A stretch of DNA of 64,000 nucleotides from Amycolatopsis suaedae (lineage in GTDB: Bacteria > Actinomycetota > Actinomycetes > Mycobacteriales > Pseudonocardiaceae): assembly GCF_004214935.1 (NCBI RefSeq), contig NZ_SFCC01000003.1, positions 310,001 to 374,000 on the forward strand, read 5' to 3'. Of this stretch, positions 15,862 through 46,686 are shown one piece after another (the first letter of the stretch is position 1; the number at the start of each line of letters is the position of its first letter). Position numbers and translations under genes: made by a program. The notes below the pieces were generated by a model. It did no database searches, had not been told where the DNA came from, and saw nothing but the letters and a program-made list of their open reading frames with translations.

Positions 15862-16246
15862 CACGTGCCCGTTCGCGCGAGTCGTACGTTCTAGGGCGCG
15901 AGTCGTAGGTTCTGACGCGCGAGTTGTACGTTCCCGCCCGTGCGTGAAGGTGGAGTTCGCGTGTGGGAGCGTGGGACTCGCGTGCGCGAAGGTGGGACTC
16001 GCGGGGCCGCGGGGTGGGAGGCGTGTCTCACGGTATGAACTCCACGCTCGTGCACGCGAGTTCTGCGTTCCGGTACGCGAGTCCCACGTTCGCGCACGAT
16101 CATCCCGGCCACGGACTTTGCCGGGGCCCTTACGTGAGACGTGGTGAAGGTGGCCTTCACGAGCATTCCAAGCCACCGGGCGGGTGACCCGGTTCACCGG
16201 ATCAGCGGGGTTGCGGGCCCGCGGGCGCGCCTCTAGGTTCTGTGCT
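15862..16246. other. Repeat-rich intergenic region upstream of the RiPP precursor
   Basis: No gene was recognised here. The left part is a degenerating array of CGCGAGTCGTACGTTC-type units in both orientations (15876-16110). The right part holds a half copy of the GTGAAGGTGGCCTTCAC repeat (about 16132-16162), preceded by CGGACTTTGCCGGG as at 2080-2095. The stretch 16163-16246 should hold the precursor promoter. Confidence 0.65.
15876..16110. repeat. Array of CGCGAGTCGTACGTTC-type units
   Basis: Clear units are 15876-15891 (exact), 15897-15912 (one change, GTAGGTTC) and 15918-15933 (one change, GAGTTGTAC). More diverged direct and inverted units (GGGACTCGCG, CGCGAGTTCTGCGTTC, CGCGAGTCCCACGTTC) continue to about 16110. 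Units are separated by 5 bp in the regular part. Confidence 0.75.
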
Positions 16247-16269
16247 GTGATGAAAACCGTTTTCATCAC
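16247..16269. promoter_or_regulatory. Perfect 23-bp palindrome resembling a Zur box
   Basis: Eleven-nt arms surround a central C. The inner 15 bp are TGAAAAC-C-GTTTTCA, flanked by GTGA and TCAC. Actinobacterial Zur (FurB) boxes have the form TGAAAA-N3-TTTTCA, which this matches at all fixed positions. It ends 15 bp before the precursor start codon, so bound repressor would cover the promoter or the transcript start. The family match is established knowledge; the claim that Zur binds here is inference. Confidence 0.75.
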
Positions 16270-16272
16270 GCG

Positions 16273-16280
16273 AAGGAGGG
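16273..16280 (+). promoter_or_regulatory. Ribosome binding site of the RiPP precursor
   Basis: AAGGAGGG ends 4 nt before the ATG at 16285. It is one of the strongest Shine-Dalgarno sequences in the window and decides the start of this 63-codon gene. Confidence 0.85.
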
Positions 16281-16284
16281 ACTG

Positions 16285-16476
16285 ATGGAAGAGATCGCGT
16301 TCCAGGACGTGGAGGCACCGCAGGCGCTCGCGGCGCCGCAGGCCCCCGGTACCAACGCCCTGGTGCACAACCCGTTCGCCTTCGAGGAGGTGGAGGCCCC
16401 CGAGGCGATGGCAGCGCCGCAGGCGCCGGGTACCAACGCGCTGGTGCACAACCCCTTCGCATGGGACGCCCGGTAG
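16285..16476 (+). CDS. Putative RiPP precursor peptide with two 27-residue repeats
   Basis: This encodes 63 residues. Residues 6-32 and 33-59 are two repeats of an acidic, Ala/Pro-rich lead-in (VEAP.A.AAPQAP) followed by GTNALVHNPFA, then Phe or Trp. There is no Cys and no Ser; Thr23 and Thr50 are the only hydroxyl side chains in the candidate cores. His28 and His55 are the only His. The 17-residue segment AAPQAP..NPFA is identical in both repeats although six of its codons differ synonymously, so the protein sequence is under selection. Neighbours (E1-like/RRE protein, two YcaO, SagB-type dehydrogenase) mark it as the substrate of azoline-type or other YcaO chemistry. A palindromic operator and strong ribosome binding site lie just upstream. 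The precursor role is inference from context. Confidence 0.85.
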   Translation: MEEIAFQDVEAPQALAAPQAPGTNALVHNPFAFEEVEAPEAMAAPQAPGTNALVHNPFAWDAR

Positions 16477-16513
16477 CTGACTGACCCGCACCCTCGTCGA
16501 CGAAGGACCATCC

Positions 16514-17287
16514 GTGATCAGTCCAGGACACCACCTCTACCGCACCGCCGACGGCTCGTGGCGGTACTCCGCCCCCGGCGGCAGGTTCGTCCGGGTCAGC
16601 GGCCCGGAACACCTGCTGCACCGGGTCCGCGACGGCGGCGAGGTGGAACCGGACGAGGCCGAGGCATTCGGCCAGCTGGTCGCCGCGCTGCGCGCGCGTG
16701 GCGTACTCGAAGACCCGGCGCCGACCGCCCTGGCGCCGGGGGGCCGGGTACACGTGGTGGGAGACAACCCGGTGGCCGAGGCGGTGGCGCTCGCGGTGGC
16801 GCCACACGCCGAGGTCAGCACCGGGCCCGTCGACGAGGGTGCGGTCGCCGCGACCGATGTCCTGGTCAGCGTCGCGGACTGGCTGCCCGACGCGCACTGG
16901 CAGCAGGTCGACCGGTGGTGCCGCGACCACGGCGTCGCCTGGCACCGCTGTCACGCCGAGGACACTGGCTTCGCCATCGGCCCGTTCTACCTGCCCGGAC
17001 GTACCGCGAGCTACGCCGACACCCGCGGCAGGCGCCTGGCGGCCAGCCCGGTCGCCGACGAACTGCTCGCGCAGTGGGCCTACCTGGACAGCGGCCCCAC
17101 CCCGCCGGTCCGCTGGCCGCGCGGCGGGCTTCCCGTGGCACTGCTGATCGAGGACGTCCTGGCTCACCTGGCAGGCGAACCCGTTCCCAGCCACGGCCAC
17201 CAGCTGGTGGCCGACCCGGCGACGGCCCGCGTCACCCGGCACCCCGTGCTGCCGCTGCCCGACCTCGCCGCGGGCCCCGCCCGGTGA
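16514..17287 (+). CDS. E1-like/RRE partner protein for YcaO (TOMM precursor leader-binding protein)
   Basis: This encodes 257 residues. The N-terminal ~75 residues (HHLYRTADGSWRYSAP ... ARGVLE) look like a winged-helix RiPP recognition element that would bind the precursor leader. The rest resembles the short E1/ThiF-like cyclodehydratase partner family: a Rossmann-like GGRVHVVGDNPVAEAVALAV, then GFAIGPFYLPGRTASYAD. In many relatives the last region carries zinc-binding CxxC pairs; here they are absent. The expected role is to deliver the precursor to the YcaO enzymes. GTG at 16514 is preceded by GAAGGACC. Its stop overlaps the next start by 4 nt (GTGA). Confidence 0.75.
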   Translation: MISPGHHLYRTADGSWRYSAPGGRFVRVSGPEHLLHRVRDGGEVEPDEAEAFGQLVAALRARGVLEDPAPTALAPGGRVHVVGDNPVAEAVALAVAPHAEVSTGPVDEGAVAATDVLVSVADWLPDAHWQQVDRWCRDHGVAWHRCHAEDTGFAIGPFYLPGRTASYADTRGRRLAASPVADELLAQWAYLDSGPTPPVRWPRGGLPVALLIEDVLAHLAGEPVPSHGHQLVADPATARVTRHPVLPLPDLAAGPAR

Positions 17288-18699
17288 CCGACCAGCCCCG
17301 CGTCCAGGCCAACCTGCGTCTTCGCGCCGCCGATGGCACCCCGCTGGCCACCGACGTCTACCTCCCGGCCACCGACACGCCGGTGCCCGCGGTCGTGACC
17401 CGCACCTGCTACGGCCGCGGCGCGCACCTGGCCGAGGGACTCGGCTGGGCCCGGCACGGGTTCGCCTACGTCGTCCAGGACGTCCGCGGCCGCTACGACT
17501 CCGGGGGCACCTGGTGCCCGTACCGCGGCGAACGCTCCGACGGCGCCGCGACGGCCGGGTGGATCACCGGTCAGCCGTGGTCGGACGGGCGGCTCGTCCC
17601 GCTCGGCGGATCGTACGCCGCCTACACCGCCTACGCGCTCACACTGTCCACACCGGACAGTGTCGCGGCACTGGTGAGCCAGGTGCCCGCGATGGGCCCG
17701 CACCGGGTCAAGTTCGACCCCGGCGGCGTGCTGCGGCTGGCCGAGCACGCCAACTGGTGGCTGGAACACGCCGAGGCCAGCACCAGCAGGCCGGGCCTGC
17801 TGGCCCGCCATCCCGACGTGCTCGACCGGCTTCCGGTGAGTGGCCTTGCCGAGCACTTCTGGCCCCGGCTGCCGGGCTGGTGGCCGGCCGTGCGGCCGTG
17901 GACGGTCCCCGGCGAGCCGCCCCCGCCCGAGGCCGTCACCGACGCCGAGCTGGCCGCCGTCGCCGTGCCGACGCTGCACGTCGGCGGCTGGCACGACCTG
18001 CTGGTCACCGAGACGCTGCACCACTGGCGCACGATCCCGGGCGCCACCCTGCGGATCGGCCCGTGGGGGCACGACCTCGCCCCGCTCGGTGGCGTGCTGG
18101 TCGACTGGATCCGGGCCGCGCTCACCGGCCAGGTCCGGCCGGACGTCGTCGGACTGCTCGGCGAGGACGGCTGGCGCACCGACCCGGTATGGCCCGAACC
18201 GGTCGAGTGGCTGTCCGGCGGCGTGCGCCGGTTCACCCACGATCCGCTGCGGCCGTTCCCGTCCACCGTGGCCGGTGCCGATCGCAGGGCACTCGACGCC
18301 CGCGACGACGCCGCCCGCTACCGCGGACCGGCTCTGGCCCGGCCGCTGGTGCTGCTGGGCAGCCCCCGGGTCCGGCTGGACGCACACACCAGCGCCGCCG
18401 GTACCGACTGGATCGCCAAGCTCGTTCACCGGCGTGCCGACGGCGGTGCCGTCGAGCTGGCGTCGGGCATGGTCGTCGCCGGCCCCGGCCGGGGCGAGCA
18501 CACCGTGGAACTGAGCCCGGCCGGTGTCCGCCTGCCTGCCGGTTCCGCGCTGGAACTGCACGTCACCAGCGCCGACTTCCCGAATCTGGCCCGCAACCTC
18601 GGTACCGGCGAGGACCGTTACACCGGCACCGCCGTCGCGGTCGCCGAGCAGACCGTGCACTCCGTCGCCGTCGAGCTGCCCATCCTGGAGGACGCGTGA
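17284..18699 (+). CDS. CocE/NonD-type (S15 family) alpha/beta hydrolase in the RiPP operon
   Basis: This 471-residue protein has the S15 X-Pro dipeptidyl-peptidase/cocaine-esterase layout. The N-terminal hydrolase domain has QDVRGRYDSGG and the nucleophile Ser (about residue 109) in LGGSYAAYTAY. A later GWHDLL and the His in GPWGHD fit the Asp and His of the triad. The C-terminal jelly-roll domain (VRLDAHTSAAGTDWIAKL) is also typical. Inside this operon it could trim the Pro-rich leader or act on a modified group; that is inference. It overlaps both neighbours by 4 nt (GTGA), so it belongs to the biosynthetic operon. Confidence 0.88.
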   Translation: MTDQPRVQANLRLRAADGTPLATDVYLPATDTPVPAVVTRTCYGRGAHLAEGLGWARHGFAYVVQDVRGRYDSGGTWCPYRGERSDGAATAGWITGQPWSDGRLVPLGGSYAAYTAYALTLSTPDSVAALVSQVPAMGPHRVKFDPGGVLRLAEHANWWLEHAEASTSRPGLLARHPDVLDRLPVSGLAEHFWPRLPGWWPAVRPWTVPGEPPPPEAVTDAELAAVAVPTLHVGGWHDLLVTETLHHWRTIPGATLRIGPWGHDLAPLGGVLVDWIRAALTGQVRPDVVGLLGEDGWRTDPVWPEPVEWLSGGVRRFTHDPLRPFPSTVAGADRRALDARDDAARYRGPALARPLVLLGSPRVRLDAHTSAAGTDWIAKLVHRRADGGAVELASGMVVAGPGRGEHTVELSPAGVRLPAGSALELHVTSADFPNLARNLGTGEDRYTGTAVAVAEQTVHSVAVELPILEDA

Positions 18700-20006
18700 G
18701 AGAGGACCTGCTCGTCGATCCCCGCTTCGGGCTCGTCACCGAGCTGGTGACGCGGCCGCGGCAGCCAGGCCTGCCGCCCGCGTGGGTCGGCTGCAGCGCG
18801 AAGGTCGCCGACACCACCCGCGCCGGACTGTCCGAAGTGGACCGCTACGGGTTCGGTGCCGCGCTGGGTGATCCGGCCGTCGCCCGCGCCGCGGCACTCG
18901 GTGAGGCGATCGAGCGTTACTGCGGCAACCTAGTGCCCGACCGGCTGCCGCTGCGGTCCTACCGCGAGCTGCGTGCGGCCGGGGTCGCCGCGGTCGACCC
19001 GGCCGAGCTGGCGCTGTACTCGCCGCGGCAGTACGCCACCCCGGGGTTCCCGTTCGTGCCGTTCACGCCGGACCTGGAGGTGGCCTGGACGCGCGGCACC
19101 GACCTGCGCACCGGCGAGGAGGTCTGGGTTCCCGCGTCACTGGTGTACCTCAACTACTTCCGCGGCGCCCACGTCGCCGAACCACCGACCCACGCGCTGA
19201 GCTACTCCGGCATCGCCACCGGTCCGACGCCGGAGGCGGCCAGGCAGTCCGCCCTGCAGGAACTGCTGGAACGCGACGCCAGCACCCTGTGGTGGGCAGG
19301 CGGTGGCCCGGCCGACGCCGTCCTCGACGCCGACGCCGTGACCGGCCAGTTCGCCGACCCCGCCGCGCCCGAGCGGACCATTCGCCTGTTCCGGATTCCG
19401 TCCGAGTTCGGTGCGCCCGTGCTGGCCGCGTTCGTCACCGACCACCCCGGTCGTGACCTGATCGCGTTCGGCACCGCCTGCCGGACGACGGCGCGGGCGG
19501 CAGCCGTCAAGGCGACGGTCGAGGCGTTCGCCGTGCTGGAGCTGACCGTCGAGCTGACCGAGCCGGACAGCGAGCTGTGGCGGGCCGTGGACGGCGGCAG
19601 CCTGGGCGGGCACGTGTTCAAGCCGTGGCGGGCCGACCGTGCCTACCGGCAGGACTTCGCCGACGACCTGCGGGACCTGGTCGACCTGCCCGCCGTCGCG
19701 CAGTTGTACCTGGACCCGGCCATGCGCGGGGAACCGCTGGACCGGCTGCGGGCCACTGAGCCCGCCGTCCCGTTCGCCGCGATCCCCGACGCGCCACCGC
19801 TGGTGGAGGCGCTGACGCGGGCCGGGCTGCGGGCGGTCGCCGTCGACCTGACGACGCCGGACGTGCGGGCCGCCGGGCTGCACGTCACCAGGGTCGTCGT
19901 GCCCGGTCTGTACGGCAACGCGCCCGCGGCCTTCCCCTACCTCGGCGGCAGCAGGCTGCCGGTCGCCGAGGACGACGTCTTCCCATACCCCATCCCGCTG
20001 GCCTAG
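18696..20006 (+). CDS. YcaO-family cyclodehydratase, copy 1
   Basis: This encodes 436 residues. YcaO ATP/Mg-binding motifs are GEAIERYCGN (about 69-78) and SALQELLERDASTLWW (about 185-200), each with the E-x-x-x-E/ER signature. The C-terminus ends FPYPIPLA, giving the PxPxP tail (PYPIP) that azoline-forming YcaO enzymes need. This copy is therefore the better candidate for backbone cyclodehydration, with Thr as the only possible azoline residue in the precursor. It overlaps the S15-type hydrolase gene by 4 nt, and the second YcaO gene starts 7 bp downstream. Confidence 0.9.
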   Translation: MREDLLVDPRFGLVTELVTRPRQPGLPPAWVGCSAKVADTTRAGLSEVDRYGFGAALGDPAVARAAALGEAIERYCGNLVPDRLPLRSYRELRAAGVAAVDPAELALYSPRQYATPGFPFVPFTPDLEVAWTRGTDLRTGEEVWVPASLVYLNYFRGAHVAEPPTHALSYSGIATGPTPEAARQSALQELLERDASTLWWAGGGPADAVLDADAVTGQFADPAAPERTIRLFRIPSEFGAPVLAAFVTDHPGRDLIAFGTACRTTARAAAVKATVEAFAVLELTVELTEPDSELWRAVDGGSLGGHVFKPWRADRAYRQDFADDLRDLVDLPAVAQLYLDPAMRGEPLDRLRATEPAVPFAAIPDAPPLVEALTRAGLRAVAVDLTTPDVRAAGLHVTRVVVPGLYGNAPAAFPYLGGSRLPVAEDDVFPYPIPLA

Positions 20007-20013
20007 GAGCAGC

Positions 20014-21312
20014 ATGCACCTCGTCGACGAACGCACCGGCGTGATCCGGCGCCTCGTGCCGCAGCCGGTGCCCGGCAGGCTGCCCGCGGCGTTCGAGCTG
20101 ATCGCCGCGGAACTGTCGGACACCACGCGGTTCTCGGTCTGGCCCAGCGACTCCGGCGGTGCGGGTTACGCGCTCGGCGACCCGGACGCCGCGGCCGGAG
20201 CGGCGGTCGGTGAGGCGGTGGAGCGTTACTGCGGCAATCTCGTGCCGCCGGGGCTGCGCCACGGTGCGTTCGACGAGCTGGACGCCGCCGTCGACCCCGA
20301 GTCGGTGGCGTTGTTCTCCGCGGAGCAGTACGCGAGCGAGGGCTTCCCGTTCCGGCCGATGACCAGGGATCTGCCGATGGAGTGGGCAGACGGCGTCGAC
20401 CTGCGGACCGGGCGGGCGACGCTGGTGCCGGCGAGCCTGGTGTGGGTGTCCTACGTCGCCGCGGCCGTCGAGGCGGGCCTGCCGCCGACCAACCCGATCA
20501 TCCAGGCGGGGCTCGCCGCGGGCCGGGGCCGCGCGGCCGCCGGGCGCAGCGCGTTGCTGGAGCTGCTGGAGCGGGACACCATCGCGCTGGCCTGGCACGG
20601 CAGGGCAGGCTTGCGCGAGGTGGCGCCGCCGCCGTGGCTGGCCGCGTGGGGCAGGGGAGGACACGGCACCTGGCGGACGCGGTTCGTCGAGTTCACCGGC
20701 GGGTTCGGCGTCCCGGTGGCCGGTGCGCTGGTGCACGACGTGGAGACCGGCTACCTGGCCATGGGCACCGCCTGCCGTCCCGACGGCGCCGACGCGTTGC
20801 GCAAGGCGCTGGCCGAGGCGTGTCAGCTGCAGTTGTTCGTCGCGGGCTACGACGACCCGGACGGCCCGTACATGCGGGCAGCCGCCGACCCGCGCAGCCC
20901 GCTGGCCCCGTGGCGGGCCGGGCGCGACTACGCGGCGGCCTACCGCGACGACCTGCGGGACGTCGTCGACTACGGCTGTCACCTGCAGCTGTACCTGGAC
21001 CCGGCGTTCCAGCGGCGGTTCCTGACCGAGCTGGACGACGCGGTGACCGGTGAGGTCTCCTGGCGGGACCTGCCTGCCGGTCCGCCGGACCTGGCCGGGC
21101 TGGTCGAGCGGGTCGCCGACGTGGCCGGTGCCCCGGTGGTGTCGGTGGACGTCACGACGCCCGACGTGGTGCCCAGCGGGCTGTCGGTGGTGCGGGTGCT
21201 GGTGCCCGGCCTGTACTCGAACTCGGCCGCGGGACTGCCGTTCCTCGGCGGCGTCCGCCAGCGTGACGTGCTGGCCGGCCGCCCCCGCCGCGACCTGCCC
21301 CTACCGCACTGA
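20014..21312 (+). CDS. YcaO-family protein, copy 2
   Basis: This encodes 432 residues and is a paralogue of the preceding gene: GEAVERYCGNLVP (about 66-78), EGFPFRPMTRDL, GRSALLELLERDTIALAW and RVLVPGLYSN all align. The ATP-site acidic residues are kept. Unlike copy 1 its C-terminus ends DLPLPH, giving a single PxP rather than PxPxP. It may form a heterodimer with copy 1 or do a different YcaO reaction, as in RiPP pathways that use two YcaO enzymes. AGGAGC lies just before the ATG. The gene is followed by a strong bidirectional hairpin. Confidence 0.9.
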   Translation: MHLVDERTGVIRRLVPQPVPGRLPAAFELIAAELSDTTRFSVWPSDSGGAGYALGDPDAAAGAAVGEAVERYCGNLVPPGLRHGAFDELDAAVDPESVALFSAEQYASEGFPFRPMTRDLPMEWADGVDLRTGRATLVPASLVWVSYVAAAVEAGLPPTNPIIQAGLAAGRGRAAAGRSALLELLERDTIALAWHGRAGLREVAPPPWLAAWGRGGHGTWRTRFVEFTGGFGVPVAGALVHDVETGYLAMGTACRPDGADALRKALAEACQLQLFVAGYDDPDGPYMRAAADPRSPLAPWRAGRDYAAAYRDDLRDVVDYGCHLQLYLDPAFQRRFLTELDDAVTGEVSWRDLPAGPPDLAGLVERVADVAGAPVVSVDVTTPDVVPSGLSVVRVLVPGLYSNSAAGLPFLGGVRQRDVLAGRPRRDLPLPH

Positions 21313-21320
21313 CGGCCAAA

Positions 21321-21375
21321 GCACGTGAAGGCCACCTTCAGTACGTCTCACGTACTGAAGGTGGCCTTCACGTGC
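21321..21375. terminator. Bidirectional hairpin between converging RiPP operons
   Basis: Perfect 25-nt arms (21321-21345 and 21351-21375) flank a TCTCA loop. The core is CACGTGAAGGCCACCTTCA. It lies between the stops of the second YcaO gene and the SagB-type gene, where a shared terminator is expected, although no U-tract follows. It belongs to the dispersed hairpin family in this window. Confidence 0.75.
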
Positions 21376-21383
21376 CCTGAGCC

Positions 21384-22100
21384 CTAGACCGCATGCCCCA
21401 CGGCGAAGAGCATCGTGGGGATCTCCGCGTCGGGCAGTTTCAGCAGCTCGCTGAGCACGTTGTCGTCGAAGCCCGCCACGGCGCAGCCGGCCAGCTTCAG
21501 CGCCGTGGCGATCAGGTACAGGTTCTGCACGGCGATCCCGGCGTCGACGTGCAGCGTCCGGTAGTGCCGCAGCGGGTACTTGGCGAACGCCAGGTCCAGC
21601 CGCGTGGTCAGGGCCAGCGTCACCGGCGCCCGCGCGGCGAACTCGGGCTGCAGGTAGGCCTTCGCCAGTTCCTCGGCAGGCGGCTCCTGCGTCACCTCGA
21701 CCAGCTCGTGGGACACCGATTCGTACCGGTAGACCCCCGGCGCCAGGCCGGCGGCCGACGTGACGATCGCGTACGCGGTCAGGCAGCGCAGCCCGCCCGC
21801 GCTGGGCGCCATGCCCAGCGGGTGGTCCTCGACGCCGTAGGCCTGCACGAACCGCTGCACCCCCAGCGCGAACCGGAACAGGGTGGACAGCGCGTCCAGC
21901 TGCAGCGGCTTGTCCGCGTAGGTGTAGTGGGAGCGCCGCTGGACCAGCGTGGCGACCATGTCGACCCGCGGCGGCTCGAAGTCGGGCAGCGCGATGCGGT
22001 GCCCGTCCGGGCGGGTGGGGTGCTCCGACTCGACGGCCGACTGCCCGTTCAGCATGCCGTGCACGGCCTTGGCCGCCGAGAGCGCCTTCCCTGGATCCAT
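21384..22100 (-). CDS. SagB-type FMN-dependent dehydrogenase
   Basis: This 238-residue nitroreductase-fold protein of the SagB/McbC type normally oxidises azolines to azoles in RiPP maturation. Motifs are RRSHYTYADKPL, the Gly-rich flavin contact APSAGGLRCL and HVDAGIAVQNLYLIATALKL near the C-terminus. Its ATG overlaps the stop of the binding-protein gene by 1 nt (ATGA), so it is translated with the ABC transporter operon, although its substrate is probably made by the convergent YcaO operon. Confidence 0.88.
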   Translation of the reverse strand: MDPGKALSAAKAVHGMLNGQSAVESEHPTRPDGHRIALPDFEPPRVDMVATLVQRRSHYTYADKPLQLDALSTLFRFALGVQRFVQAYGVEDHPLGMAPSAGGLRCLTAYAIVTSAAGLAPGVYRYESVSHELVEVTQEPPAEELAKAYLQPEFAARAPVTLALTTRLDLAFAKYPLRHYRTLHVDAGIAVQNLYLIATALKLAGCAVAGFDDNVLSELLKLPDAEIPTMLFAVGHAV

Positions 22101-23098
22101 CAGCGGAACGCCTGCGGGTGCAGAGCCCTGGCCAGGCTCGCGACGGCGGGGGCGCTGCGCAGCGCGCCACCGAAGGACGCCTCCTCGATCGGGACGAAGC
22201 GGCCGGAACGCCCAGCGGCGGTGGCCGCGAACAGCCTGCGCATCTCCTGCTCGGAACTCACCCGGTTGTCCTCCGTCCGGTACACGTAGACGATCACCTC
22301 GGGGTTCTTCCTGGCGATCACCTCGGGGCTCAGCTGACCGTAATACTCCCCGGCCGGAATTTCCGCCTGTTCGGTGAGGTTGCGTGCTCCGGCCCTGGTC
22401 AGCACGTCTCCGTACAGCCCACCCGCGTGTGCGTACAGAGCAGAGTCGTAGCTGGTCAGCAGTACCGCCCCGACCGGCGTCACCCCGGCCAGCCTAGCTT
22501 CCACATCGGACAGTTGCTGGCGCAGGCCCGCGGTGAGCGGCTCGGCGAGGTGGGTCGTGCCGAGGATGCGGCCGAGGTCGAGGACGTCGGCGAAGGAGTC
22601 CGGCACGGTCGAGGTCACCTTCGTCGGCTCGTGCAGGGCACGGTTGATGTAGACCTGGATGCCGCGCCCGGCCAGGTCGTCGCGGCGGGGCAGGCGCTTG
22701 CCGTCGAAGTGGTACTCCTGGTCGGAGACGACCAGGTCGGGACGGGCGTTGAGCAGCGCCTCCGTGGTGGCCTCGGTGTCGGCGAGCACCGGCACCGCGG
22801 CTGCCTTGTCCTTGTACTGCGGCTGCGGTGCCGAGTAGCCGGTCCCGGCCTGGCCGACCAGCCTGCCCTCCGCGCCGAGCGCGATGAGCAGGTCGGTCAT
22901 GCTCGGGTACAGCGACACGATGCGGGCGGGTGGCGCGGCGAACGTCAGCGTGCGGCCGGTGTTGCCGACCGTCAACGGGAAGCCCGGGGCGGCACCGGCC
23001 GCGGGGGCCTGCGGCCGTTCACCCGAGGCGGAGCAGGCGGCGGTGGCCGCGGCACCGGCAACAGCGATCAGCAAGCTCCGCCTGGTCAGGTCGCGCAT
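22100..23098 (-). CDS. Fe-siderophore/metal-type ABC transporter substrate-binding lipoprotein
   Basis: This 332-residue FecB/BtuF-like binding protein is exported and lipid-anchored: MRDLTRRSLLIAVAGAAATAACSAS carries a Tat-like RR and lipobox TAAC. The fold signatures include PPARIVSLYPSMTDLLIALGAEGRLVG and ARPDLVVSDQEY. Such proteins bind metal chelates (siderophores, haem, cobalamin) outside the membrane. In this locus the candidate ligand is the metal-loaded modified peptide, which is inference. It overlaps the ATPase gene by 13 nt. Confidence 0.88.
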   Translation of the reverse strand: MRDLTRRSLLIAVAGAAATAACSASGERPQAPAAGAAPGFPLTVGNTGRTLTFAAPPARIVSLYPSMTDLLIALGAEGRLVGQAGTGYSAPQPQYKDKAAAVPVLADTEATTEALLNARPDLVVSDQEYHFDGKRLPRRDDLAGRGIQVYINRALHEPTKVTSTVPDSFADVLDLGRILGTTHLAEPLTAGLRQQLSDVEARLAGVTPVGAVLLTSYDSALYAHAGGLYGDVLTRAGARNLTEQAEIPAGEYYGQLSPEVIARKNPEVIVYVYRTEDNRVSSEQEMRRLFAATAAGRSGRFVPIEEASFGGALRSAPAVASLARALHPQAFR

Positions 23099-23886
23099 TC
23101 CGGGGTCCCTTCGGTGTCGGATCTGGAGAAGAACAGGTGCGGCGCGCCGGACACCGGGTGCCTGCCGAGCGTGGCGGACACCCCGAACACCTCGCGCACC
23201 GTCTCGGGGGTGAGGACGTCGGCGACCGGCCCGGCGGCGACCACCCGGCCGCCGTCGAGCAGGTAGAGCCGGTCGCAGTAGGCCGCGGCCAGGTTGAGGT
23301 CGTGCAGGACGACGACCGTGGTGGTCGGCAGCGCCGCCACCAGGTCGAGGAACTCCAGCTGGTGGGCGATGTCGAGGTGGTTGGTCGGCTCGTCGAGCAC
23401 CAGCACCCTGCTCTGCTGGCACAGCGCGCGGGCCAGCACCACCCGCTGCCGTTCGCCGCCGGACAGCGTCCCGAACAGCCGGTGCCCGGCGTGGTCCATG
23501 CCGACCTGTTCCAGCGCGGTGTCGGCGATGCGGTGGTCGGTGGCGGTCGCCGGGGCCAGCAGCGACTGGTGCGGGGTACGGCCCATCAGCACGACCTCCC
23601 GCACGCTGAGCCGGAACTCCTCGGCCGAGTGCTGGGTGACCGCCGCCGTGCGGCGGGCGGCGGCGCGGGCGGACAGGTCGCGCCAGACGTCGTCGCCGTC
23701 GACCAGGACGGCCCCGGCATGCGGCCGCAGCGCCCGGTACAGCGAGCGCAGCAGCGTCGACTTGCCACTGCCGTTCGGGCCCAGCACGCCGACGATCTCG
23801 CCGTCGCGGGCCTCCAGTTCGACGCCGTGCACGATGTGCACCCCGTCGATGGCCACCGAGACGCCGTCGAACCGCACGGTGCTCAC
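23086..23886 (-). CDS. FecE-type ABC transporter ATPase
   Basis: This 266-residue ATPase powers import of a metal chelate with the adjacent permease. Walker A is GPNGSGKST, Q-loop TQHSAEEF, signature LSGGERQRVVLARAL, Walker B RVLVLDEPTNHLDI and H-loop VVVLHDLN. GTG at 23886 is chosen because it forms a GTGA overlap with the permease stop; a longer form from ATG 23913 is possible. The gene sits in the order permease-ATPase-binding protein-SagB. Confidence 0.92.
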   Translation of the reverse strand: MSTVRFDGVSVAIDGVHIVHGVELEARDGEIVGVLGPNGSGKSTLLRSLYRALRPHAGAVLVDGDDVWRDLSARAAARRTAAVTQHSAEEFRLSVREVVLMGRTPHQSLLAPATATDHRIADTALEQVGMDHAGHRLFGTLSGGERQRVVLARALCQQSRVLVLDEPTNHLDIAHQLEFLDLVAALPTTTVVVLHDLNLAAAYCDRLYLLDGGRVVAAGPVADVLTPETVREVFGVSATLGRHPVSGAPHLFFSRSDTEGTPECAT

Positions 23887-24926
23887 GTGGTCACCTCCCT
23901 GCGCAGCAGCCACAGCAGGAACGGCACGCCGATCACCGCCGTGAGGATGCCCAGCGGCAGTTCGGTGTCCGACAGCACGCGGCCGAGCAGGTCGACCAGC
24001 GCGAGGTAGCAGGCACCGGCGAGTGCGGCGGCGGGCAGCAGCTTGCGGTGCTCGGCGCCGACGAGCAGCCGGACGACGTGCGGAACGACCAGCCCGACGA
24101 ACCCGACCCCGCCCGCCACCGAGATGACCGCGCCGGTGAGCAGCGCGGCGGTCACCAGCAGCCCGACCCGTAGCCGGGTCAGCTGGGCGCCCAGTGCCGC
24201 GGCCGCGTCGTCACCGAGCAACAGCAGGTTCAGCCTGCGTGACTGCGCGAACAGCAGCACGGTGCAGGCCGTGACGATGGCCGCGGGCAGGCCGAGCTGG
24301 TCCCACCGGGCGCCGGACAGCGAGCCCAGCAGCCAGAACACCACGCCGGCGAGCTGGTCCGGACTGGCCTTGATCTGCAGGTAGCTGGTGACGGCCTGGA
24401 GCAGGTAGCCGATGGCGACGCCGGCCAGCAGCAGCCGGGTGGGCGCTAGTTGGCCGCCGCGCCTGCCGAGCAGCAGCACCAGCCCCAGTGCGAGCATCGC
24501 GCCCGCGAAGGCAGCGGCGGAGACCCCGAGCCCGCCGACGGCGGCCGCGCCGAGCGTCAGCACCGCGACCGCCGCGGCCGACGCGCCGGAGGAGACGCCG
24601 AGGATGTACGGCTCGGCCAGCGGGTTGCGCACGACGGCCTGCAGCACGACGCCCGCCACCGACAGGCCGGCTCCCACGATCAGGGCAAGGAACACGCGCG
24701 GAGCGCGCTGGTCCCAGATGATCGCGTCGTCGATGGGATCGAGCGATCCCGCCGAGCCGATGCCCAGCAGGTGATGGCCGAGGATCCGCCACAGCTCGGC
24801 GGTGTCCACCCCGACGGTGCCGAGGGTGACGCCGGTGGCCAGCGCGACGACCGTCGCGGCCAGCAGCGCCAGGAGGAAGAGGGGATAAGCCTTGCCAGAG
24901 ATCGGATGTGGATGTCCGCGCGTCAC
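23883..24926 (-). CDS. FecCD-type ABC transporter permease
   Basis: This 347-residue permease of the siderophore/cobalamin/haem import family has about ten hydrophobic helices. Recognisable motifs are DQRAPRVFLALIVGAGLSVAG near the N-terminus, NPLAEPYILGVSSGAS and GFVGLVVPHVVRLLVG. It is the first gene of the four-gene minus operon. The GTG start at 24926 has AGGGTGGGT upstream. Divergent from it, 98 bp away, is an MFS exporter with a shared promoter region that has a Zur-like site. Confidence 0.93.
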   Translation of the reverse strand: MTRGHPHPISGKAYPLFLLALLAATVVALATGVTLGTVGVDTAELWRILGHHLLGIGSAGSLDPIDDAIIWDQRAPRVFLALIVGAGLSVAGVVLQAVVRNPLAEPYILGVSSGASAAAVAVLTLGAAAVGGLGVSAAAFAGAMLALGLVLLLGRRGGQLAPTRLLLAGVAIGYLLQAVTSYLQIKASPDQLAGVVFWLLGSLSGARWDQLGLPAAIVTACTVLLFAQSRRLNLLLLGDDAAAALGAQLTRLRVGLLVTAALLTGAVISVAGGVGFVGLVVPHVVRLLVGAEHRKLLPAAALAGACYLALVDLLGRVLSDTELPLGILTAVIGVPFLLWLLRREVTT

Positions 24927-25000
24927 TACCCACCCTGCCGTCGAGGTCCGCCGAAGGCCAGCCGGTCGATCTTACCGGCCGCCGTCTGATTAGATGTACA

Positions 25001-25015
25001 TGACTATCATTTCCA
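25001..25015. promoter_or_regulatory. Zur-box-like site in the divergent transporter promoter
   Basis: TGACTATCATTTCCA matches the actinobacterial Zur consensus TGAAAATCATTTTCA at 12 of 15 positions. It lies in the only AT-rich patch of the 98-bp region between the FecCD permease gene and the MFS exporter gene. It is a weaker palindrome than the site before the precursor gene. Binding by Zur is inference. Confidence 0.5.
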
Positions 25016-25024
25016 ATAGCTTGG

Positions 25025-26275
25025 ATGGCGGGGGGTTTGCCAGTGGCGTTGCGCACGCGATCGGAGCGATCGCTGTGGACCGACGGCCGGTTCGTCGTGT
25101 TCACCGTCGCCCGCACGGTCTCCTGGGCCGGTACCGCCATCACCCTGGTCGCGCTGCCGATGCTGGTCTTCCAGCGCACCGGCAGCCCCGCGCTGACCGC
25201 GTTGCTCACCGCCGCCGAAGTGCTGCCCTACCTGTTGTTCGGCCTGCTCGCCGGTGCGCTGGCCGACCGGTGGTCGCGGCGCGCGGTGATGGTGGTGACC
25301 AGCGTCGGGCAGGCCGCGGTGCTGGCCAGTGTCCCGCTCGCCGACGCGTTCGGTGTGCTCGGCACCGCCCACCTGCTGGTGGCCGCGTTGTGCACGGCCG
25401 CCGCCGGGGTGTTCTTCGACGCGGCGAGCTTCTCCGCCATCCCCGAACTGGTCGGCCGGGACAAGCTGGCCGAGGCCACCGGTGTCAGCTCGGGCCTGAG
25501 CACGGTGATCTCCATGCTCGGCCCCGGCGTCGGCGGGGTGGTCGCGGCCTCGCTGGGGCCTGCCAACGCGATCGGCATCGACGCGCTCAGCTACGCCGTC
25601 GCCGCCGTGCTGCTGGCCCGGCTGCCGCTGCTGCGGGCGGCGTCGGCGCCCGCCGGACGGCCGTTGCGGGGTGACATCGCCGAAGGACTGCGTTACGTCT
25701 GGCGGCATCCGCTGATCCGGCCGCTCACCCTGCTCGGCATCGGCAACAGCCTGGCCGCCGGTGCGGTGCTGGCCCTGCTGCTGCCCGCGGCCGTCGAACA
25801 GCTCGGGCTGGCCGCCGACGACGCCAGGATCGGCCTGCTCTACGCCGCCGTAGGCGCGGGCGCGCTGCTGGCGACCGTCGTGCTGCCCAGGCTCAGCCGG
25901 GCGTTGCCGCCGGGCTGGGTGACGCTCGGCGGCCTGCTGCTGAGCTGGGTGTTCCTGCTCGGCTGGGTGCTGGCCACGACGTTCCCGGTCGCGCTGGCCG
26001 CGCTGGCGTTGTGGCAGGCGTCGAACACCCTGGTGGTGCTGAACGGGATCCTGGTCCGCCAGCGGGTCACGCCGGACGAGTTGCAGGGCAGGGTCAACAC
26101 GACCGGCCGGATGATCGCGTGGGGCGGGCAGCCCCTCGGGGCGGTGCTCGGCGGCGGTCTGGCCGGCGTGTGGGGAACGTCCGGCGCGCTGGTGTGTGTC
26201 GGGTCGGCGGCGCTGGCGGCCTGCCTGGCCGGTCTGTGCACGCCGTTGCGCAGACGGCGGTACGCGTTGGTCTGA
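25025..26275 (+). CDS. MFS exporter, EntS-like
   Basis: This 416-residue transporter has about 12 helices and resembles the enterobactin exporter EntS group: RSLWTDGRFVVFTVARTVSWAG, the loop LAGALADRWSRRAVMV between helices 2 and 3, and FFDAASFSAIPELVGRDKLAEATG. In the RiPP locus it is the natural candidate for exporting the mature peptide. ATG at 25025 is listed, but GTG at 25043, preceded by a GGGGGG tract, may be the real start. Confidence 0.85.
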   Translation: MAGGLPVALRTRSERSLWTDGRFVVFTVARTVSWAGTAITLVALPMLVFQRTGSPALTALLTAAEVLPYLLFGLLAGALADRWSRRAVMVVTSVGQAAVLASVPLADAFGVLGTAHLLVAALCTAAAGVFFDAASFSAIPELVGRDKLAEATGVSSGLSTVISMLGPGVGGVVAASLGPANAIGIDALSYAVAAVLLARLPLLRAASAPAGRPLRGDIAEGLRYVWRHPLIRPLTLLGIGNSLAAGAVLALLLPAAVEQLGLAADDARIGLLYAAVGAGALLATVVLPRLSRALPPGWVTLGGLLLSWVFLLGWVLATTFPVALAALALWQASNTLVVLNGILVRQRVTPDELQGRVNTTGRMIAWGGQPLGAVLGGGLAGVWGTSGALVCVGSAALAACLAGLCTPLRRRRYALV

Positions 26276-27828: not shown

Positions 27829-27877
27829 CGTGAAGGCCACCTTCAGTACGTGTGACGTAGTGAAGGTGGCCTTCACG
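27829..27877. terminator. Hairpin between converging PucR gene and mce operon
   Basis: Arms 27829-27851 and 27855-27877 (core CGTGAAGGCCACCTTCA) pair with one mismatch around a 3-nt loop. The position between two converging transcription units fits a shared terminator. It belongs to the dispersed hairpin family. Confidence 0.65.
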
Positions 27878-38140: not shown

Positions 38141-38195
38141 GCACGTGAAGGCCACCTTCACCACGTCAGACGTGGTGAAGGTGGCCTTCACGTGC
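38141..38195. terminator. Bidirectional hairpin between converging secreted-protein genes
   Basis: Perfect 25-nt arms (38141-38165 and 38171-38195; core CACGTGAAGGCCACCTTCA) flank a TCAGA loop. It lies between converging genes ending at 38119 and 38204 and belongs to the dispersed hairpin family. Confidence 0.75.
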
Positions 38196-46630: not shown

Positions 46631-46686
46631 AGCACGTGAAGGCCACCTTCATTACGTCTCACGTGGTGAAGGTGGCCTTCACGTGC
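46631..46686. terminator. Hairpin after coaD
   Basis: Arms 46631-46656 and 46661-46686 (core CACGTGAAGGCCACCTTCA) pair with two mismatches. The hairpin lies 18 bp after the coaD stop and before a separately promoted gene. It is a member of the dispersed hairpin family. Confidence 0.7.

What the first reader, a model, noticed from the sequence alone, without database searches (positions are those of the whole stretch)
16247..26275. Candidate zinc-regulated RiPP system with its own export and re-import machinery
One 10-kb locus combines a short repeat-containing precursor, an E1-like/RRE protein, an S15-type hydrolase, two YcaO proteins, a SagB-type dehydrogenase, an FecCD/FecE/FecB-type chelate importer and an EntS-like exporter. 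Zur-like sites sit before the precursor gene and in the transporter promoter. That architecture is what a metallophore pathway looks like, but with a ribosomal peptide as the chelator. I know of no described zincophore of this type. The parts are seen in the sequence; the linkage to zinc is inferred from the operator and from precedent (Zur control of coelibactin and EDDS pathways).
Basis: partly seen in the sequence, partly recalled or inferred. Interest (0 to 1): 0.95.

Follow-up and report, generated by a model that had tools for sequence, protein, structure and literature searches.

The report
Zinc-regulated streptamidine-family peptide cluster
These genes encode a ribosomally made small peptide with predicted modifying enzymes, exporter and importer, and the DNA in front of them, as in nearly all relatives examined, matches the known binding site of the zinc sensor Zur, so this widespread peptide family, whose role was unknown, is likely a zinc scavenger made when zinc runs short.

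Summary
The family is not new: the precursor is a streptamidine-related RiPP (NCBIfam NF040715, 119 bits, cut-off 45), and the cluster is a motif-B, two-YcaO relative of the ami cluster published in 2021 (PMC8442711). Its authors suspected metal import, found no metal binding by streptamidine (zinc included) and no mutant phenotype, and left the role unknown.

New here is the zinc link. A Zur box ends 19 bp before the precursor gene. Of 64 non-redundant actinobacterial loci, 59 carry a box with at most 2 mismatches before the precursor (shuffles: 3.7%), 58 at a class-specific distance. So do 30 of 30 loci of a Streptomyces-type genus. The same motif marks zinc genes in the window's genome (L28/MRF, AztA) and in relatives (ZnuA, COG0523). 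One acidobacterial relative sits beside the zinc chaperone ZigA.

Zur control of the family is well supported. A secreted and re-imported zinc carrier is the likeliest function but unproven, and the published zinc-binding test speaks against it. The precursor's aligned core has no histidine, so the proposed His chelator is doubtful.

The parts
16251..16265 (.). Zur box TGAAAACCGTTTTCA (21-mer TGATGAAAACCGTTTTCATCA), ends 19 bp before the precursor start
   Evidence: fits the published motif (PMC5472717); conserved in 59 of 64 loci
16285..16476 (+). amiA-type precursor, 63 aa, two repeat units, no Cys or Ser
   Evidence: NF040715 119 bits, cut-off 45
16514..17287 (+). AmiB-type RRE/E1-like partner protein
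   Evidence: TIGR03882 weak; AlphaFold2 and Foldseek to LynD/TruD, MccB
17284..18699 (+). AmiC-type S15/CocE serine hydrolase, presumed leader peptidase
   Evidence: PF02129, PF08530, TIGR00976
18696..20006 (+). YcaO protein 1 (AmiD-type, closer to the single YcaO of motif-A clusters)
   Evidence: PF02624, TIGR03604
20014..21312 (+). YcaO protein 2
   Evidence: PF02624, TIGR03604
21384..22100 (-). SagB-type dehydrogenase (AmiE counterpart), last gene of the importer operon
   Evidence: TIGR03605 124 bits, cut-off 78
22100..23098 (-). FecB-type substrate-binding protein
   Evidence: PF01497
23086..23913 (-). FecE-type ATPase (start uncertain)
23883..24926 (-). FecCD-type permease
   Evidence: PF01032 306 bits
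25001..25015 (.). second, weaker Zur-like box (2 mismatches) in the divergent importer/exporter promoter
   Evidence: same place in L081
25025..26275 (+). MFS exporter, EntS-like
   Evidence: PF05977, PF07690; NF007792 132 bits, below cut-off

Best explanation
This locus is a motif-B member of the streptamidine (ami) RiPP family with a Zur box before its precursor gene, so it is predicted to be switched on by zinc starvation and likely makes a small modified peptide that is exported, binds zinc and is taken back in as the chelate. Predicted course: zinc-loaded Zur sits on the box at 16251 and, more weakly, on the one at 25001, and holds both operons off. When zinc falls, the precursor is made, held by the RRE of the E1-like protein, modified by the two YcaO proteins (a six-membered amidine by analogy with streptamidine, perhaps also an azoline at the invariant Thr, oxidised by SagB), trimmed by the serine hydrolase, exported by the MFS protein, and recovered by FecB/FecCD/FecE. 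Shown here: gene content, the box, its conservation and its sharing with zinc genes. Inferred: Zur binding, the chemistry, export and re-import, and zinc as the cargo.
For: Precursor over the NF040715 cut-off and the ami gene set. Box with up to 2 mismatches before the precursor in 59 of 64 non-redundant actinobacterial loci, the window included (24 of 28 motif B, 35 of 36 motif A; 44 with up to 1, 20 with none), against 3.7% (0.3% for up to 1) of shuffles; 58 of 59 within class-specific spacing ranges that I read off the data; centre C or G in 97% and A/T flanks, positions not selected on. 23 of 24 named genus groups. 30 of 30 loci of a Streptomyces-type genus, one of which was also in the first sample. 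In the window's genome the motif also stands between an L28 paralogue and an MRF GTPase and before AztA. In ten genomes, 12 of 23 strict non-ami sites adjoin ZnuA, COG0523, AztA-like or L33 genes. Separate import operons have their own box with up to 1 mismatch in 14 of 43 loci, tiles 3.3%. COG0523-type genes in 12 of 67 stretches, some weak matches; ZigA beside an acidobacterial relative. FecCD present in 59 of 64 loci.
Against: Purified streptamidine, a motif-A product, showed no binding of zinc or six other metals, and the amiD mutant grew like wild type in metal starvation (PMC8442711). Streptamidine was made in substantial amounts in cultures whose zinc level I could not see. The aligned core of this precursor has no His or Cys. 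Five of 64 loci lack a box with up to 2 mismatches; 18 of 43 separate import operons have none. Acidobacteriota relatives lack this box. FecB's nearest solved relatives are remote and do not tell the cargo. No sigma-70 promoter was found. Which of three FUR-family genes is Zur is not settled by models. No expression, binding or product data for this locus.
Confidence: 0.64

Rival explanations
1. The peptide is controlled by Zur but is not a zinc carrier: it acts as a signal or a weapon during zinc starvation, and the Fec importer brings in something else or takes the peptide back as a signal.
For: Streptamidine bound no metal in the published assays and the mutant had no starvation phenotype; the authors suggest signalling or development (PMC8442711). 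Zur regulons hold non-transport genes too (table in PMC6103462, passage).
Against: Importer of a metal-chelate type in 59 of 64 loci, often with its own box; in S. albidoflavus the fec genes are needed for production. No antibacterial or antifungal activity was detected.
Confidence: 0.22
2. The peptide carries another metal (iron, cobalt, nickel or copper), and Zur or a related FUR-family regulator controls it for another reason.
For: Fec-type importers mostly serve iron chelates or B12; the nearest NCBIfam models are F420-0, B12 and siderophore transporters, all below cut-off. Three FUR-family genes in the genome.
Against: The box equals the published Zur motif and marks ZnuA, AztA, COG0523 and ribosomal paralogue genes in these genomes; zinc genes lie beside several clusters. 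The published assays found no binding of iron, cobalt, copper, nickel, manganese or magnesium either.
Confidence: 0.1
3. An ordinary azole-type RiPP antibiotic cluster with a chance Zur-like site.
For: Two SagD-type YcaO proteins and a SagB dehydrogenase are the azole-forming set.
Against: The precursor has no Cys or Ser and two Thr; the box is conserved far beyond chance.
Confidence: 0.03

Closest known systems
Streptamidine (ami) cluster of Streptomyces albidoflavus J1074, Russell et al. 2021, PMC8442711
   Same: Precursor with the ALV..NPF element, AmiB E1-like protein, S15-type hydrolase, YcaO, dehydrogenase and Fec-type importer
   Different: Motif A core HLSATH, one YcaO, four fec genes, two ABC exporter genes; here motif B, two YcaO, three fec genes, MFS exporter. 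No regulation described in its main text
Motif-B, two-YcaO ami clusters of Frankia, Rhodococcus and Clavibacter (same paper; L054, L094, L102 here)
   Same: Two-repeat or single motif-B precursor, two YcaO, Fec importer, MFS gene; gene set of the window
   Different: Gene order and sequence (YcaO1 46-57% identical in most, 72% in Amycolatopsis anabasis); no product known
Zur-controlled zincophores: coelibactin (S. coelicolor) and [S,S]-EDDS (Amycolatopsis japonicum)
   Same: Actinobacterial metallophore pathways under Zur (PMC6103462, passages)
   Different: Non-ribosomal or other enzymatic chemistry, not a ribosomal peptide
Klebsazolicin and bottromycin
   Same: YcaO-made amidine rings in RiPPs (as told in PMC8442711)
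   Different: Unrelated precursors; klebsazolicin blocks translation; no Zur link that I know of

Membership tests
streptamidine-related RiPP family (NF040715 / ami clusters) | precursor scores above the family cut-off | tested here: met
   119.2 bits, cut-off 45
streptamidine-related RiPP family (NF040715 / ami clusters) | AmiB RRE/E1-like, AmiC hydrolase, YcaO, dehydrogenase | tested here: met
streptamidine-related RiPP family (NF040715 / ami clusters) | Fec-type importer in the cluster | tested here: met
   FecB, FecE and one FecCD gene, not four genes
streptamidine-related RiPP family (NF040715 / ami clusters) | amidine ring in the product | not testable with these tools
   needs the compound
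streptamidine proper (NF040714) | precursor above cut-off, core HLSATH, ABC exporters AmiT1-T2 | tested here: not met
   33.1 bits, cut-off 40; core region APQAPG; MFS exporter instead
Zur regulon | 7-1-7 Zur box in the promoter region | tested here: met
   16251-16265, conserved
Zur regulon | motif shared with known zinc genes of the same genome | tested here: met
   L28/MRF and AztA
Zur regulon | zinc-dependent Zur binding and derepression | not testable with these tools
   needs EMSA and expression data
zincophore | product binds zinc | not testable with these tools
   published test on streptamidine, a relative, was negative
zincophore | export and chelate-import genes in the cluster | tested here: met
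   MFS and FecB/E/CD
classical azole RiPP (LAP) | Cys/Ser/Thr-rich core | tested here: not met
   no Cys, no Ser, one Thr per repeat

The most novel reading that the evidence does not exclude
The whole streptamidine superfamily is the first class of ribosomal zincophores: three or more precursor classes (motif A, motif B and an unannotated HSSNH class of about 31 residues) stand under Zur, the family reaches from Actinobacteria into Acidobacteriota where one cluster sits beside the zinc chaperone ZigA, and the isolated streptamidine is a zinc-free fragment of the true chelator, cut next to the invariant Ser/Thr that follows the core and that the essential dehydrogenase oxidises.
Probability: 0.42. 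Interest if true: 0.92.

Novelty: new variant of a known kind. Interest (0 to 1): 0.8.

Why it matters
Streptamidine-type clusters were reported from over 230 species, and the 2021 paper states that their biological role is unknown. Zur control gives that question a specific, quickly testable answer: starve producers of zinc, or delete zur, and look for the real product. It also offers a reading of the negative metal tests: the compound isolated may be a fragment, or the cultures zinc-replete. If right, it adds ribosomal peptides to the known chemistry of zinc scavenging and gives a Zur-guided way to find more.

Tried and rejected
Chance box: rejected by conservation and shuffles. Azole antibiotic: the precursor lacks Cys and Ser. 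Another metal regulator: not favoured, since the motif marks zinc genes. Own-family search: of 100 genomes of the window's family only the window's own has an NF040715 precursor, so the cluster is rare there. The genome-wide look with up to 3 mismatches gave 17 sites, reversed control 3; of the 16 others I looked only at the three with 2 mismatches: L004 and L005 adjoin zinc genes, L003 an MFS gene and an ORF without a Pfam hit. Promoter scan: nothing. FecB against solved structures: remote relatives only. Internal negative set: 7 YcaO loci with an AmiB-like protein but no AmiC (L108, L110, L112-L115, L118) have no box with up to 1 mismatch; neither do some with AmiC, such as L119 (Chloroflexi MAG) and L135.

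Rows dropped: one search had 74 precursor rows; 7 near-identical upstream regions and three rows that are not actinobacterial motif A or B (L109, L111, L116) were dropped, leaving 64. The 60 sites of its motif table include one spurious L111 row. The precursor expression missed L080 (in-frame stop, below cut-off), L096/L097 (SIV for ALV; 2-mismatch box 34 bp upstream), L134 and the HSSNH class; none of these is among the 64. Three of 33 loci were not fetched.
Full report
Observation. Five genes run forward from the precursor (16285) to the second YcaO (ends 21312). SagB, FecB, FecE and FecCD run backward (21384-24926). The MFS exporter runs forward from 25025. The flanking genes look unrelated: an adenylate cyclase and an arginase-family protein upstream, a PucR-type regulator downstream.

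What it is. NCBIfam names the precursor: NF040715, streptamidine-related RiPP repeat protein, 119 bits against a cut-off of 45; the stricter streptamidine model gives 33 bits, below its cut-off of 40. Streptamidine was described in 2021 (PMC8442711; I read parts 1 to 4 of the 5 parts of the main text, plus passages; not the supplements). The paper defines amiA, B, C, D, E, F1-F4 and T1-T2, two precursor motifs A and B, and two-YcaO clusters, usually motif B, mainly in Frankia, Rhodococcus and Clavibacter. It hypothesises metal import from the Fec genes, reports no metal binding (zinc included) and no phenotype of an amiD mutant in metal starvation, and says that the biological role remains unknown. 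The words Zur and promoter do not occur in its main text. The window locus is a motif-B member. An AlphaFold2 model of its AmiB (22 aligned sequences; pLDDT 93.3, pTM 0.75) matches the LynD/TruD heterocyclases and MccB, which supports RRE plus E1-like.

The zinc link. The published Zur motif of S. coelicolor is a 7-1-7 palindrome, tGaNNatSatNNtCa, with a 21-bp computational form taaTGaNAANNNTTNtCANta from 17 actinobacterial genomes (PMC5472717, passages). The window's box is TGATGAAAACCGTTTTCATCA. I tested conservation with two samples: 27 stretches from 25 other genomes with NF040715 or NF040714 hits (8, the window's included, and 18 of 394 class genomes), and 80 named loci from a YcaO search (the best 80 of 449). 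A precursor was recognised in 74 rows, 67 after removing near-identical upstream regions; three of these are not actinobacterial motif A or B, leaving 64 with the window. Of these, 59 have a box with up to 2 mismatches at the 10 fixed positions in the 350 bp before the precursor: 24 of 28 motif B and 35 of 36 motif A; 44 have up to 1 mismatch and 20 none. Shuffles of such regions reach 2 mismatches in 3.7% and 1 in 0.3%; other 350-bp tiles of the loci in 2.7% and 0.8%. In 58 of 59 the spacing falls in a narrow range for its class (98-114 bp before the ALV codon in motif B, 130-180 in motif A; ranges read off the data). Positions that I did not select on agree with the published motif: centre C or G in 97% of 60 sites and A/T-rich flanks. 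By named genus group 23 of 24 have a box; the exception, a Pseudonocardiales MAG (L091), also shows no FecCD in its 20.7 kb. A further sample, the genus of G039 (unnamed; its precursors match those of named Streptomyces), had precursors in 33 of 246 genomes; of 30 loci scanned, 30 have a box, 29 of them 147-167 bp before the ALV codon, and many have the exact streptamidine core HLSATH (G039 itself was also in the first sample).

That the box is Zur's. In the window's genome, two of the three closest other matches stand between an L28 paralogue and an MRF GTPase, and before AztA, the ATPase of a zinc importer. In ten genomes chosen for their ami clusters the strict pattern TGANAAYSRTTNTCA gives 30 sites against 3 for the reversed control. 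Six are amiA boxes and one an ami import operon. Of the other 23, 12 adjoin ZnuA (7), COG0523 (2), AztA-like (2, one weak) or L33 (1) genes. The remaining 11 include two NRPS genes, two family-5 binding proteins and a FecCD gene. The window's genome has three FUR-family genes; one follows an ArsR-like ORF, an arrangement that I recall as typical of actinobacterial Zur, but NCBIfam's models do not settle it.

Zinc genes beside the clusters. COG0523-type genes match in 12 of 67 fetched stretches (48 to 224 bits, so a few are weak), with L28/S14/S18 paralogues in three that have HLSATH precursors (L061, L062, L155). Where the import operon is separate from amiA, 14 of 43 have a box with up to 1 mismatch in 1.6 kb upstream (25 of 43 with up to 2), against 3.3% (12.3%) of 703 tiles; 18 of 43 have none. 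FecCD is present in 59 of 64 loci. In two acidobacterial MAGs (L109 Holophagales, L116 Thermoanaerobaculia) related clusters have His-rich precursors (HSNTHNHALVHNPF, HTNSHNHALVENPF). In L109 the precursor is divergent from ZigA, a zinc metallochaperone GTPase (603 bits, cut-off 600); in L116 from a FecB-type binding protein. They lack the actinobacterial box.

Mechanism. The regulatory half is well supported: Zur would repress with zinc and release both operons without it. The transport half rests on the constant company of a Fec-type importer and an exporter gene. The chemistry is by analogy: in streptamidine the N-terminal amine and the second carbonyl form an amidine. If the hydrolase cuts at the aligned place, the window's core would be Ala-Pro-Gln-Ala-Pro-Gly, followed by the invariant Thr (49 of 49 distinct motif-B units; Ser in 33 of 33 motif-A units). 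That Ser/Thr next to the core would suit cyclisation and oxidation by YcaO plus SagB, and could explain why the dehydrogenase is essential although streptamidine is not oxidised, one of the options its authors list. This is inference.

Limits. The published zinc-binding test on streptamidine is negative; the aligned motif-B core has no His or Cys; five of 64 loci lack the box. Searches for an existing report of the zinc link found none: streptamidine (12 papers listed, one of them read), Zur with YcaO, Zur regulon with RiPP, YcaO, RiPP, zinc and metallophore, and two broader sets. The library holds only open-licence papers.

Verdict. A real locus of a known family. The family-wide Zur link is the new point.

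Noticed in passing
L117, L121, L122, L123, L124, L127, L128, L130, L131, L137, L138, L144, L151: A third precursor class of about 31-40 residues with an H(S/T)SNHA core and an AW(R/K) or similar end, next to AmiB-like and YcaO genes; 11 of 13 have a Zur box with up to 1 mismatch within 450 bp (not L123, L151). The three tested have no meaningful NCBIfam match.
   Followed up: partly
L134:8577-8699: Pseudonocardia sp. CNS-139: a 40-residue ORF with RAHCTPAVDAPFSW, a 1-mismatch Zur box 28 bp upstream, Fec genes and COG0523 matches nearby; a possible further precursor type.
   Followed up: no
L109, L116: Acidobacteriota MAGs carry ami-like clusters with His-rich precursors; L109 sits beside ZigA.
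   Followed up: partly
window 21325-21371, 27830-27876, 38145-38191, 46636-46682; singles at 1916, 2114, 16144: Palindromic element GTGAAGGTGGCCTTCAC, 11 matches with up to 2 mismatches (0.01 expected), four times as an inverted pair 30 bp apart; one pair lies between the convergent ends of YcaO2 and SagB.
   Followed up: no
window 15874-16091: Five copies of an 18-bp repeat like CGCGCGAGTCGTACGTTC, 21 bp apart in two groups, upstream of the precursor promoter.
   Followed up: no
   Followed up: no
L076, L077, L078 (genome G081): One genome with three copies of the precursor gene; two have a 1-mismatch box, the third (L078, near a contig end) none.
   Followed up: no
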